From NCBI GenBank assembly GCA_938023075.1, contig CALHDG010000087.1, forward strand, positions 1 to 60,637: DNA of 60,637 bases. The letters are read 5' to 3'. Position numbers and translations under genes: made by a program. Below the pieces are notes generated by a model. That model did no database searches. It was not told the origin of the DNA and saw only the letters and a program-made list of their open reading frames with translations. The DNA is from an uncultured Chitinophagales bacterium. Its GTDB lineage: Bacteria; Bacteroidota; Bacteroidia; Chitinophagales; JAHDHT01. The number at the start of each line of letters is the position of its first letter. Positions within the stretch are counted from its first letter, which is position 1. This document shows, piece after piece, positions 6,837 through 59,539 of this stretch.

Positions 6837-7012
6837 ATTTTTCTATCTCTTTAATAGCGTACTACACCAATTGTATAATCAATTTGGTATTAATCTATTT
6901 TTTGTGGAAATATAAAATTTTATGATTTAAATATTCAAAAAAGTGGCTTATTTTTGAAAAGTTTTCCTATTCAATGTATCTCTTTTTTGAAAACAACCGG
7001 CTAACACTATTA

Positions 7013-7100
7013 AATGGCAGTCCCGCTTTTCGCTAAATCTTTTTATGCCACGCTGCAAGCCTGCGCTTCATAAAAAGGATACCGCTACAATCGGGTTTAG
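7013..7100 (-). ncRNA. Structured intergenic element, copy A (candidate Flavo-1-like RNA)
   Basis: Read on the minus strand: CCCGAT, AGCGG, a variable stem, AGCG and GCGGG. The variable stem pairs ATCCTTTTTATG with CATAAAAAGAT around a loop containing GAAGCG. It shares its invariant loops with five other copies in this window. This copy lacks the TTTCGCTTCAAA tail seen in most others. It lies just downstream of the barrel-like protein gene on the same strand. Confidence 0.65.
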
Positions 7101-7133
7101 ATTGGTGACTTCGGTGCTTCGTTAGGCAAGGTT

Positions 7134-16304: not shown

Positions 16305-16386
16305 ATAAAAATCACAACAAAGATAAAGCTATTTGTTAGAAAACGGTTGACCTATTAAAATTGCATGTAAATAGTTCGCATGATTA

Positions 16387-16500
16387 GAAGCGAAAGGATA
16401 AAACAGGTTGGAAACGGGCTCCCCGCTTTCCGCTCAAATGCCATTTGCCTGCGCTGCAAAAGCCACTCAAAATGGCATAACCGCTGCAATCGGGGCTAAA
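16387..16500 (-). ncRNA. Structured intergenic element, copy B (candidate Flavo-1-like RNA)
   Basis: Minus-strand order: TAGCCCCGATTG, AGCGG, variable stem, AGCGG, AAAGCGGGG, then a tail ending TTTCGCTTC. The variable stem ATGCCATTT/AAATGGCAT is a perfect nine-pair helix of different sequence from the other copies. It sits between two minus-strand membrane-protein genes. Confidence 0.7.
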
Positions 16501-16542
16501 CTTCCAACCTCACTAGTACTTAAAAACACATTAAATTTAAAG

Positions 16543-22905: not shown

Positions 22906-24456
22906 TTAATCGCAAGAACCGATTTTTATTTGAAGTGTACTATTGGCTGGTGCCGAAAAATGATTAAGCAATGTAACATTGTTGCCTCCTTTTAAAGTTA
23001 CATCATTATCTTGAGCAATATTGCCGTAAGAAGTAATAGTAATTCCTGCCTGGTAAGTCCCACTGCTTAGTTCGGCATCTTGCAATTCTAAAATTGCAGA
23101 ACAAGCAGGAGATATAGCCATATTTTTAAATACAGTTAAGGTACTGGAGAAATCATTGTTGAGTAAAACAAAAATATCCAAATCGGTATCGTTATCAATA
23201 TCGGCAACGCTTAGGGTAGGAATGGTGGAACTGTATTGGCTATTGAAATTGACTGTTTGTGTTGTATTAAAATTACCATTTCCATCGCCAAAATACCAAT
23301 GTAATTTTCCTTGAGGTACATTTACGCTTAAGATATCTAAATTATCATCGGCGTTTTGTTGACCAAATTGCATATGAAAGGCATTGTCAAGAATTTGTGG
23401 AGAACCATATTGCGATTCGTCCACCACATAACCATGTAACCACGAATTATAGTCTTCTAAAAAATTGAATTCTTTATTTTGAACATCATATTCCATCACA
23501 TAAAATTCAGGTTTACTTCCGCAAATTTCTCCATGTATGCCACATCTATTGGTTTGGGCAAGCTCTATCAATAATTCTTCTTTTCCATCACTATTAATAT
23601 CTTGTGTTTTAATGTTAGAAAAAAAATATACTAAGTGACTATTGGTGTAGTAGTCGAAAGCCAATATTGGATTTTTATAAAAATTGTTTGAACCTAAATT
23701 TTCATATAAAGTAATAATTGAAGTGGTTGAAAAATAATTGAACCGTATCAAATAGGCATACTGTCCGCTGCTGATTACATCCATATCACCATCTTCATCA
23801 ATATCTACTGTTTTAATGGTAAAAAACATTTCGGGTCTTTCATTGTCTAAATAGATATAGTTGGTAAATGTACCACTGCCATTATTATAGCCTATTATAC
23901 ATTCACCAATAGGATTGTATCTCATATACGTTCGAAGGATATCGGTTTTATTCCAAAAAATACCATCCATATCGCCGTCGCCATCCATGTCGGCTATCTG
24001 TTTTAAATCAGATTCTAAAGGATTATCAAAAGTTACTTCATTAGCTATTTGTGTAAAAATATTGCCTTGCCCATCACTTATTAAAATTGTAAATCTGGTA
24101 TTACTATTTTGAAATACAATATCTTTAATATTATCACCATCCATATCTTCATAAAAAATGTCTTTATTTATATGATTGTTATCCACTTCAAAAAGAGTAG
24201 TTTGCTCAATAAAATTTCCACTTCCATCACCTTTGTACCAAGTGAGTTGATTTGGGTTTTCATCTTTTACAACAAGAATATCTAACCAACTGTCGTTATC
24301 AAAATCAACCACTTTAAAATTTTTTTGTATAGCACCAAAGTTGAATTCGCCGTTTACTGAATGGATTACTGTCCCGGCATCGTATTGGGCAAACAGCTTG
24401 GGTGTTAATATTAAAACACTGAAGAATACTTGAAAGATAATTGTAAGAAGTTTCAT
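22906..24456 (-). CDS. FG-GAP/VCBS repeat surface protein with 3-coathanger-stack C-terminus (paralogue 2)
   Basis: A 516-residue secreted protein with signal peptide MKLLTIIFQVFFSVLILTPKLFA. Calcium-binding-like FG-GAP/VCBS repeats recur through the chain (DFDNDSWLDILVVKD, DMDGDNIKDIVFQN, DMDGDGDMDGIFWN, DIDEDGDMDVISSG, DIDNDTDLDIFVLLN), consistent with a beta-propeller. The C-terminal ~65 residues (ELSSGTYQAGITITSYGNI..., ending IGSCD) resemble the 3-coathanger-stack domain that ends many T9SS-exported proteins. Tandem paralogue of the gene 44 nt upstream; signal peptides and 5' leaders are nearly identical. Binding or adhesion is a likely role. Confidence 0.88.
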   Translation of the reverse strand: MKLLTIIFQVFFSVLILTPKLFAQYDAGTVIHSVNGEFNFGAIQKNFKVVDFDNDSWLDILVVKDENPNQLTWYKGDGSGNFIEQTTLFEVDNNHINKDIFYEDMDGDNIKDIVFQNSNTRFTILISDGQGNIFTQIANEVTFDNPLESDLKQIADMDGDGDMDGIFWNKTDILRTYMRYNPIGECIIGYNNGSGTFTNYIYLDNERPEMFFTIKTVDIDEDGDMDVISSGQYAYLIRFNYFSTTSIITLYENLGSNNFYKNPILAFDYYTNSHLVYFFSNIKTQDINSDGKEELLIELAQTNRCGIHGEICGSKPEFYVMEYDVQNKEFNFLEDYNSWLHGYVVDESQYGSPQILDNAFHMQFGQQNADDNLDILSVNVPQGKLHWYFGDGNGNFNTTQTVNFNSQYSSTIPTLSVADIDNDTDLDIFVLLNNDFSSTLTVFKNMAISPACSAILELQDAELSSGTYQAGITITSYGNIAQDNDVTLKGGNNVTLLNHFSAPANSTLQIKIGSCD

Positions 24457-31041: not shown

Positions 31042-31090
31042 AAAGCCCACCCCTTCGCAAGCGAAGGGGAATTAGTTCGGCAGACTGAAG
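31042..31090. repeat. GC-rich hairpin of a second short repeat type
   Basis: CCCCTTCGC-AA-GCGAAGGGG is a perfect nine-pair inverted repeat (31050-31069), embedded in AGCCCACC...GAAGGGGAATTAG...CGGC. A partial relative with the same AGCCCACC and GAAGGGGAATTAG flanks occurs near 36135-36195. Confidence 0.5.
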
Positions 31091-31094
31091 TTTC

Positions 31095-31191
31095 TAATAT
31101 AGCCCCGATTGTAGTGTTTCCTGTCACGCAGTGCAGGAAGTAGCGGAAAGCGGGGAGACTGCTAATGCGAGCCAAACTGTTTCGCTTCAAA
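31095..31191 (+). ncRNA. Structured intergenic element, copy C (candidate Flavo-1-like RNA)
   Basis: Plus-strand order: TAGCCCCGATTG, AGTG, variable stem TTCCTG/CAGGAA, TAGCGGAAAGCGGGG, then a 35-nt tail ending TTTCGCTTCAAA. This is the shortest stem of the six copies. It lies between the ABC ATPase and permease genes, antisense to them. Confidence 0.7.
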
Positions 31192-31225
31192 TAATTTAAA
31201 AAATGACTTTGCATAAGATGTACTT

Positions 31226-34813: not shown

Positions 34814-34868
34814 AGTAGGTGAATCTTCTTTTATTATTAACGTGGCATATAATAACTATATTTTTTTT

Positions 34869-34985
34869 AGTAGCGAAACGGTAAAACAATTTGGAAAGGG
34901 GCTGCCCGCTATCCGCTCAAATGCCATTTTGCAATCGCTTCAAATCAACACCGCAAATGGCATAACCGCTGCTATCGGGGCTAAA
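34869..34985 (-). ncRNA. Structured intergenic element, copy D (candidate Flavo-1-like RNA)
   Basis: Minus-strand order: TAGCCCCGATAGCAGCGG, variable stem ATGCCATTTGC/GCAAAATGGCAT, TTGAGCGGATAGCGGG, tail with TTTCGCTACTA. The apical loop contains GAAGCGA. It fills most of the 336-bp gap between the helicase and EamA genes and lies antisense to both; nothing else is recognised in that gap. Confidence 0.7.
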
Positions 34986-35149
34986 CTTCCAACATCATCA
35001 CTTTTTAAATACATTCCAAATACATAGCCATCAGATTAACACTTGCACTATATTGATGGATGTAATACATTTTAATTAATACAATATATAAAAATTATTG
35101 AAAAATATAAACAACTACTTAAAAGTTATTTTCACTAAATTGCTTGCCA

Positions 35150-36481: not shown

Positions 36482-36570
36482 TTAAGTAAAAGCCTATCAA
36501 AGTGGTTGAGACTTTGCTGTTTTCTACTGAGTCTATTATTTATTTTTCTACGAAGAACGGGCGTTTTTAA

Positions 36571-36688
36571 ACTAGCCCCGATTGCAGCGGTTATGCTGCC
36601 TGAAGCGCATGATTTTGCAGCCAAGCCGCAGCATTTGAGCGGAAAGCGGGACTGCCGTTATTATAATGCTGCAAGGATTCGCTTCAAA
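36571..36688 (+). ncRNA. Structured intergenic element, copy E (candidate Flavo-1-like RNA)
   Basis: Plus-strand order: TAGCCCCGATTGCAGCGG, variable stem ATGCTGC/GCAGCAT, TTGAGCGGAAAGCGGG, tail ending ATTCGCTTCAAA. The loop sequence GAAGCG is complementary to CGCTTC in the tail. It lies between the convergent MITE-bearing region and infB. Confidence 0.72.
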
Positions 36689-36771
36689 AAAAATTAATGC
36701 AAAAGTGTAAACTACTTTAGTTTGTGGAAAAACTTGTGTAATGAATCAATCAATTATGAATAATCAATTAT

Positions 36772-42250: not shown

Positions 42251-42338
42251 GGAGAGGTGGCCGAGCGGCTTAAGGCGCACGCTTGGAAAGCGTGTATACC
42301 TCAAAAGGGTATCGGGGGTTCGAATCCCTTCCTCTCCG
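42251..42338 (+). tRNA. tRNA-Ser(GGA)
   Basis: Cloverleaf seen directly: acceptor stem GGAGAGG/CCTCTCC, D-arm GCCGAGCGGCTTAAGGC, anticodon stem CACGC/GCGTG around loop TTGGAAA (anticodon GGA, reading UCC and UCU), a long variable arm typical of serine tRNAs, T-arm GGGGGTTCGAATCCC with TTCGAAT, and discriminator G. CCA is not encoded. Confidence 0.97.
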
Positions 42339-43420: not shown

Positions 43421-43728
43421 GTAATTTTGACAAGTTTATCTAAACAACAAAGTAGTTTACACTTAATTCAAATTTTAGATAAGAAGAGGCTATTGACCCC
43501 CCAGAAATTCCCAATACCAACTGGCGTCATCGCAGAAAATGTGGAGAGTAACGGAACATTTATCAGCGATCTCGCCTAAGGATTTCCCCTAAATTCAAGG
43601 TTTAAGCGGGTGTTTTTAGGAGAGATGCCGGATAATCTACTCCGCAAGCTCCGCAGATTTTCGGCATGACGTTTGTTTTACTTACTTTAATCGAGTGTCA
43701 ACTACCTTGATAAACTTGTCGTAATTTT
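43421..43728. mobile_element. Candidate MITE 1: 292-bp insert with inverted ends and 8-bp target duplication
   Basis: The 12-bp ends GACAAGTTTATC (43429-43440) and GATAAACTTGTC (43709-43720) are perfect inverted repeats, and similarity continues inward (TAGTTTACACTTAATT against TAGTTGACACTCGATT, 13/16) after a 9-nt offset. The 8-bp GTAATTTT lies directly outside both ends (43421-43428, 43721-43728). The interior is more GC-rich than its surroundings, has no coding potential and holds a nested hairpin (ATGCCG...CGGCAT, about 43624-43667). No transposase is present. Confidence 0.75.
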
Positions 43729-59326: not shown

Positions 59327-59393
59327 AATTTCATTTATTTTTTATTATTTCTGTAAGATGAGTTCGTATGTTGGTTAAACTGAACCTGGAAAA

Positions 59394-59500
59394 TTAGCCC
59401 CGATAGGAGCGGTATCCTTTTTGTGGAGAGAAGCGGAACAAAAAGATTTAGCGGATAGCGGGTAGCCTGTTTCCATTTACGGCTGTCCTTTCGCTTCAAA
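59394..59500 (+). ncRNA. Structured intergenic element, copy F (candidate Flavo-1-like RNA)
   Basis: Plus-strand order: TAGCCCCGATAGGAGCGG, variable stem ATCCTTTTTGT/ACAAAAAGAT, TTAGCGGATAGCGGG, tail ending TTTCGCTTCAAA. The loop GAAGCGG faces the complementary CGCTTC of the tail. It is antisense to the two flanking minus-strand genes. Confidence 0.72.
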
Positions 59501-59539
59501 TAAAAATTAACCGAATTATTGTTGTTTATCAAACGGCGA

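What the first reader, a model, noticed from the sequence alone, without database searches (positions are those of the whole stretch)
36571..36688. Six-copy structured intergenic element with covarying stems
Copies at 7013-7100 (-), 16387-16500 (-), 31095-31191 (+), 34869-34985 (-), 36571-36688 (+) and 59394-59500 (+) share the order TAGCCCCGAT..(A)GCGG - variable stem - AGCGG - .AGCGGG. The central stem is different in each (ATCCTTTTTATG/CATAAAAAGAT; ATGCCATTT/AAATGGCAT; TTCCTG/CAGGAA; ATGCCATTTGC/GCAAAATGGCAT; ATGCTGC/GCAGCAT; ATCCTTTTTGT/ACAAAAAGAT) yet remains paired, and an outer CCCCG/CGGGG pairing frames the conserved internal loops. Such compensatory change argues for selection on RNA structure. 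From memory this resembles the Flavo-1 motif of Bacteroidota, whose function is unknown; the identity is inference. Copies lie in either orientation relative to neighbouring genes.
Basis: partly seen in the sequence, partly recalled or inferred. Interest (0 to 1): 0.78.

Follow-up and report, generated by a model that had tools for sequence, protein, structure and literature searches.

The report
Flavo-1: a dispersed hairpin DNA repeat
The six elements are copies of Flavo-1, a motif catalogued as a bacterial small RNA, but in this genome (about 375 copies) and its relatives it behaves like a scattered hairpin-forming DNA repeat that hitch-hikes inside one mobile element and is the fixed landing site of others.

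Summary
All six copies are Flavo-1 (Rfam RF01705): two exceed the curated cut-off (57.8 and 57.2 bits) and four fall below it (37.4 to 32.8; cut-off 42). Pairing and covariation are real: in 83 diverged cores the 8 core pairs are 96.7% standard, and the covariation score is 0.516 against 0.158±0.013 shuffled.

The inference "selection on RNA structure" is only partly supported. Changes are almost all two-sided: 117 such cells against 6 G·U and 3 A·C in 664. tRNA stems from these genomes have 10.4% G·U. This points to pairing at DNA level.

The element behaves as a dispersed DNA repeat. There are about 375 copies in this genome, in either orientation, mostly just after stop codons. Distribution is patchy across the class, and congeners mostly lack each other's copies at syntenic sites. 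About a third of sampled copies, including the named one, sit inside a ~250-bp MITE (12-bp inverted ends, 8-bp target duplications).

Flavo-1 is also a landing site: a ~220-bp structured non-coding cassette (68 matches genome-wide) and one IS110-family transposon are inserted at one bond, GATT^GCAGCGG.

The family is known. Its DNA-repeat nature, the MITE capture and the landing-site role are new here. What moves Flavo-1 itself remains unidentified; RAYT is not required.

The parts
36576..36651 (+). Flavo-1 core of the copy named in the finding (unit roughly 36546-36696)
36487..36738 (+). MITE that carries this Flavo-1 copy; terminal inverted repeats decayed (left end keeps TATCAAAGTGGTTGA, right end GAAAAACTTGTG), no target duplication left at this copy
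   Evidence: (subterminal repeats 3 and 1 mismatches from the family pattern), intact relatives
7021..7096 (-). Flavo-1 core, no TIR (unit about 6976-7124)
16421..16495 (-). Flavo-1 core, no TIR (unit about 16376-16525)
31104..31155 (+). Flavo-1 core, short central stem, no TIR (unit about 31076-31200)
34904..34980 (-). Flavo-1 core, no complete TIR pair (unit about 34860-35008)
59398..59463 (+). Flavo-1 core, no TIR (unit about 59370-59508)
43429..43720 (.). related MITE of the same TIR family (GACAAGTTTATC ... GATAAACTTGTC) without Flavo-1, with exact 8-bp target duplication GTAATTTT

Best explanation
Flavo-1 is a dispersed, non-autonomous, hairpin-forming DNA repeat, a Bacteroidota counterpart of REP, BOX and ERIC repeats, and not a conventional small-RNA gene. 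Its folded form is conserved at DNA level: Watson-Crick pairs that co-change, plus invariant A.G and G.A mismatches on one strand. The most economical reading, which is inferred, is that one strand folds when DNA becomes single-stranded and is recognised in that form by a mobility enzyme or host factor not identified here. In this genome many copies were additionally spread by a cut-and-paste transposase after one Flavo-1 was captured inside a ~250-bp MITE with GACAAGTTTATC ends and 8-bp target duplications (ends and duplications shown by sequence; the transposase inferred); the copy at 36571 is one of these. Copies persist mainly just downstream of genes, where insertion is tolerated. Once common, Flavo-1 became the fixed landing site of IS110-type elements (position shown; RNA guidance inferred).
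For: Copy number: an unbiased 294-kb sample gives 18 complete copies, about 61 per Mb, about 375 per genome. Distribution: 76 of 198 genomes of the class, uneven inside single genera (0, 1 and at least 22 in genus g45). Site polymorphism: of 7 copies mapped between two congeners, 2 are shared and 5 absent. Identical or near-identical units occur in unrelated contexts of two genera. DNA-level pairing: 636 of 664 core cells Watson-Crick, G.T 6, A.C 3; inner stems 1842 of 1948 WC, 23 G.T, 14 A.C; tRNA control 20 G.U of 192. Fixed mismatches: A.G 93/93 twice, G.A 93/93 and 92/93. MITE: 28 of 93 copies have both subterminal repeats; exact 8-bp duplications ATATTTCT, GCTTTTTT, AATTACTT, GAAATAAG, GATTTTTT, ATGAAAGG, AAAAATGT. 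Location: median 42 nt from a gene 3' end against 105 nt from a 5' end. Landing site.
Against: No enzyme that moves Flavo-1 itself was found, and no clean empty site of a non-TIR copy. The non-TIR copies show no clear target duplication, so independent insertion rests on dispersal pattern and unit boundaries. G.T slightly exceeds A.C (29 to 17, p=0.10), so a strand-specific, possibly RNA, contribution is not excluded. One shared site between congeners has diverged with its pairs kept, which could also mean a selected host function. The tRNA control is small (16 tRNAs).
Confidence: 0.68

Rival explanations
1. Flavo-1 acts as RNA: a small RNA or mRNA-end element whose hairpin is selected, as Rfam's 'Gene; sRNA' label implies.
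For: Significant covariation; conserved purine mismatches that also suit RNA; 3'-proximal position; some 5' transcribed regions coincide with hits (PMC9723704); one orthologous pair diverged with pairing kept.
Against: G.U almost absent; sense and antisense both common (24 to 44); patchy presence; hundreds of copies; many Flavo-1 hits in F. psychrophilum not in transcribed regions (PMC9723704); no conserved flanking promoter or terminator in the consensus around copies.
Confidence: 0.15
2. Flavo-1 is a REP-type substrate of a RAYT/Y1 transposase acting on folded single-stranded DNA.
For: Strand-specific purine mismatches; no TIR and no clear target duplication in non-TIR copies; Y1_Tnp genes common in the class (143 of 198) and nine matches in this genome.
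Against: G033 has at least 22 copies and no Y1_Tnp match; no Flavo-1 within about 1.5 kb of the nine Y1_Tnp matches by Rfam, although one IS200 lies close to two interrupted copies; RAYT genes are normally flanked by their REPs (own knowledge); no GTAG foot.
Confidence: 0.1
3. The co-changing stems come from DNA template-switch or conversion between palindrome arms and copies, not from selection.
For: Near-perfect Watson-Crick stems with hardly any one-sided intermediates are what quasi-palindrome correction produces.
Against: The A.G and G.A mismatches are never 'corrected' and the same pairs co-vary in independent genera.
Confidence: 0.12
4. Host-useful DNA signal (nucleoid, termination or repair site) spread and kept for the host's benefit.
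For: Intergenic, 3'-proximal; pairing kept at one shared site.
Against: Absent from most genomes of the class; no clear replication-strand bias by eye in a single-contig genome (30 copies, origin assumed at contig start); several lineage-specific peripheries.
Confidence: 0.08

Closest known systems
Flavo-1 RNA motif (Rfam RF01705; Weinberg et al. 2010, PMC2864571)
   Same: Same core sequence and structure; two window copies above the gathering score, four homologous below it.
   Different: Described as a candidate RNA of unknown function; here it is shown as a high-copy dispersed repeat with DNA-type (wobble-poor) pairing, partly inside a MITE.
REP / BIME repeats with RAYT (enterobacteria and others)
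   Same: Short intergenic hairpins in high copy number, targets of IS110-family elements (IS621 into REP, PMC11208160).
   Different: No GTAG or CGTC foot, several times longer (REPs 20-40 bp, PMC3733652), no RAYT association.
BOX and RUP repeats of Streptococcus pneumoniae (PMC3049150)
   Same: Dispersed structured intergenic repeats; RUP proposed to ride on IS inverted ends.
   Different: Unrelated sequence; here a structured repeat is nested inside the TIR element.
Bacterial MITEs
   Same: 12-bp TIR, 8-bp target duplication, ~250 bp, non-coding.
   Different: Carries a complete Flavo-1 as cargo; parent insertion sequence not found.
IS110-family elements with bridge RNA (IS621)
   Same: An IS110-family gene and a structured non-coding cassette interrupt a repeat hairpin at one fixed bond with a short shared core.
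   Different: The cassette has no transposase gene and forms tandem arrays; guide pairing not demonstrated.

Membership tests
Flavo-1 (RF01705) | covariance-model score at or above gathering (42 bits) | tested here: met
   met for 7015-7102 (57.8) and 59392-59469 (57.2); not met for the other four (37.4-32.8), which align with them in the conserved core
Flavo-1 (RF01705) | found in Bacteroidetes | tested here: met
   76 of 198 genomes of the window's class positive, 0 of 14 control genomes; nearest infB relatives are Bacteroidota
Small-RNA gene | discrete transcript from the element | not testable with these tools
   no RNA data for this organism; literature on F. psychrophilum argues against for many copies (PMC9723704)
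Structured RNA | compensatory change including wobble pairs | tested here: inconclusive
   two-sided change strong, wobble nearly absent
MITE (copy 36571 and its subgroup) | terminal inverted repeats, no coding gene, short length | tested here: met
   28 of 93 copies with both subterminal repeats, most 221-230 bp between them (246-253 bp TIR to TIR)
MITE (copy 36571 and its subgroup) | target-site duplication | tested here: met
   exact 8-bp duplications in several members; decayed at the window copy
MITE (copy 36571 and its subgroup) | matching autonomous insertion sequence | tested here: not met
   none among 93 TIR-pattern hits at 1-3 kb spacing; the one 2.5-kb span contained two small elements and an ordinary gene
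REP/RAYT system | RAYT gene flanked by the repeat | tested here: not met
Retroposed element | excess of 5'-truncated copies with constant 3' end | tested here: not met
   18 five-half-only against 15 three-half-only copies
IS110-type bridge-RNA element (the ~220-bp cassette) | guide loops in the non-coding RNA that pair with target and donor | tested here: inconclusive
   strong RNA fold and fixed target bond, but shared words with the target are only 5 nt

The most novel reading that the evidence does not exclude
Flavo-1 is the single-stranded-DNA substrate of an unknown recombinase or transposase, i.e. a new class of non-autonomous mobile DNA long mislabelled as an RNA family, and is at the same time the RNA-programmed landing pad of a transposase-less IS110-type cassette that builds tandem arrays inside it.
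Probability: 0.27. Interest if true: 0.75.

Novelty: new variant of a known kind. Interest (0 to 1): 0.52.

Why it matters
RF01705 is annotated as a small RNA across Bacteroidota genomes. If it is a dispersed DNA repeat, those annotations mislead sRNA surveys: PMC9029176 already lists Flavo-1 among the most abundant small RNAs. The near-absence of wobble pairs is a cheap test that could re-sort other orphan RNA families into RNA and DNA elements. The nesting order (Flavo-1 in a MITE, IS110-type cassette in Flavo-1) gives a natural, high-copy target set for studying RNA-guided insertion and a handle for finding the enzyme that moves Flavo-1.

Tried and rejected
RAYT/Y1 as mobiliser: no proximity, and a genome with many copies but no Y1 gene. 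Retroposition: truncations not 5'-biased. Replication-orientation bias: roughly even in a 3.47-Mb single contig (18 to 12, tallied by eye assuming origin at contig start). Autonomous parent of the TIR MITE: not found. Shared neighbour gene near copies in other genomes: none of note. Target duplication for non-TIR copies: none in the narrow test, p 0.84; p 0.05 in the wide one. Plasmids and phages: no match; 4 viral contigs match a strict pattern. Orthologous infB loci from named genomes: too distant (68-69% identity at best) for a presence/absence test. attC-like reading: ends do not fit the RYYYAAC/GTTRRRY order (by eye).

Full report
Observation. Reading the six places and scanning with Rfam confirms the finding. 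All six are Flavo-1 (RF01705); two pass the curated score and four score 32.8-37.4 bits, below 42. Three of the latter belong to a subgroup whose central stem (ATGC.../...GCAT) differs from the ATCCTTTT stem of most high-scoring copies; the fourth (31104) has a short stem. There are four, not six, distinct central stems in the window.

Copy number and context. The genome holding the window (6.12 Mb, 288 contigs) is full of Flavo-1: 143 of 150 scored candidates match. An unbiased sample of contigs C1-C21 gave 18 complete copies in 294 kb, about 375 per genome. In 752 kb chosen around hits I collected 93 copies. They are intergenic in both orientations. Among copies between co-directional genes the median distance is 42 nt to the gene 3' end and 105 nt to the next start. 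In the window all six lie 34-84 nt after a stop codon; the named copy lies after infB.

Structure. The conserved core is GATNGNARYGG ... ARYGGAN'AG. N pairs with N', R-Y and Y-R pair, an outer CCCG/CGGG helix closes it, and A·G, G·A, A·G, G·A mismatches are essentially invariant (93/93, 93/93, 93/93, 92/93). On 83 diverged cores from this and other genomes, 96.7% of cells form standard pairs, covariation scores 0.516 against 0.158±0.013 in shuffles (0/500), and slid registers give at most 0.114. Mutual information ranks two of these pairs first and second in other genomes taken alone. So the helix is real and constrained.

RNA or DNA. Wobble pairs are nearly missing: 6 G·T and 3 A·C of 664 core cells, 23 and 14 of 1948 inner-stem pairs. 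Acceptor and T stems of 16 tRNAs from the same set of loci have 20 G·U and 0 A·C of 192 (Fisher p 3e-9 for G·U in the core). RNA helices normally evolve through G·U (own knowledge). The shortage, and the weak asymmetry between G·T and A·C (p=0.10), suggest that pairing is constrained as DNA. The mismatches are purine-purine on the Flavo-1 strand and would be pyrimidine-pyrimidine on the other, which favours that strand folding alone, as single-stranded DNA. This step is inference. Published transcriptome work also found no transcript logic (PMC9723704).

Dispersal. Across the class, 76 of 198 genomes have it, with strong differences within genera. Between two congeners, 7 copies could be mapped to syntenic sites: 2 shared, 5 absent. 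One shared pair has diverged strongly and still pairs, either in-place compensation or conversion. Recent copies in other genomes show sharp unit ends and different flanks, and identical or near-identical units sit in unrelated contexts of two genera. Peripheral sequences differ by lineage, while the core does not.

MITE capture. In this genome 28 of 93 copies, including 36571-36688, lie between inverted repeats (GACAAGTTTATC ... GATAAACTTGTC) of a ~250-bp element. Exact 8-bp target duplications flank several members. Members without Flavo-1 exist, one in the window at 43429-43720 with duplication GTAATTTT. At 36571 the ends have decayed (about 36487-36738) and no duplication is left. The parent transposase was not found. 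Forty-five of 93 copies have neither repeat, so the MITE is a vehicle, not the definition, of Flavo-1.

Landing site. Half-copies of Flavo-1 in this genome are often split by a ~220-bp non-coding cassette. It has 68 matches genome-wide. Of 36 rows examined in 30 overlapping loci nearly all are inside Flavo-1 at the same bond, CCCGATT^GCAGCGG, with ATT at both junctions, and a few sites hold two or three cassettes head to tail. The cassette folds strongly as RNA (z -3.8, 0/200). On contig 89 an IS110-family gene (NF033542, 148 bits, cut-off 140), truncated beside an IS200 element, follows a Flavo-1 half broken at the same bond. IS621, an IS110 element, inserts into REP repeats under guidance of a bridge RNA (PMC11208160). 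By analogy the cassette may be a transposase-less, RNA-guided relative; guide pairing was not shown (shared words of only 5 nt).

Verdict. Flavo-1 membership is settled. The RNA reading is weakened, not excluded. A dispersed, DNA-level, non-autonomous repeat that is both cargo and target of other mobile elements fits best (0.68). The mobilising factor of non-TIR copies is unknown and RAYT is not required.

Noticed in passing
window 43429-43720: MITE of the same TIR family as the one carrying the 36571 Flavo-1 copy, but without Flavo-1; exact 8-bp duplication GTAATTTT.
   Followed up: partly
own genome, e.g. L048:3143-3371, L296:1044-1740, L297:1500-2170: ~220-bp structured non-coding cassette inserted at one bond of Flavo-1 (GATT^GCAGCGG), 68 matches genome-wide, sometimes in tandem arrays.
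   Followed up: partly
L069:143-2450 (contig C89): IS110-family transposase gene (N-terminally truncated) beside an IS200/IS605 element, downstream of a Flavo-1 half broken at the same bond; a second Flavo-1 nearby holds the cassette.
   Followed up: partly
L109:9081-9148 and L122:8706-8770 (genomes G088, G124): Flavo-1 at the same syntenic site and orientation in two congeners, strongly diverged yet still paired.
   Followed up: partly
L091, L092, L156, L157 (genomes G057, G193): Flavo-1 with a common 5' neighbour that looks like a terminator hairpin with variable arms plus T-run, nearly identical in two genera in different contexts.
   Followed up: no
window 23855-23940 (+): Sub-threshold match to RAGATH-35 RNA (32.8 bits, gathering 38.9), on the strand opposite a predicted coding sequence.
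   Followed up: no
window 42251-42338 (+): tRNA gene with a long variable arm.
   Followed up: no
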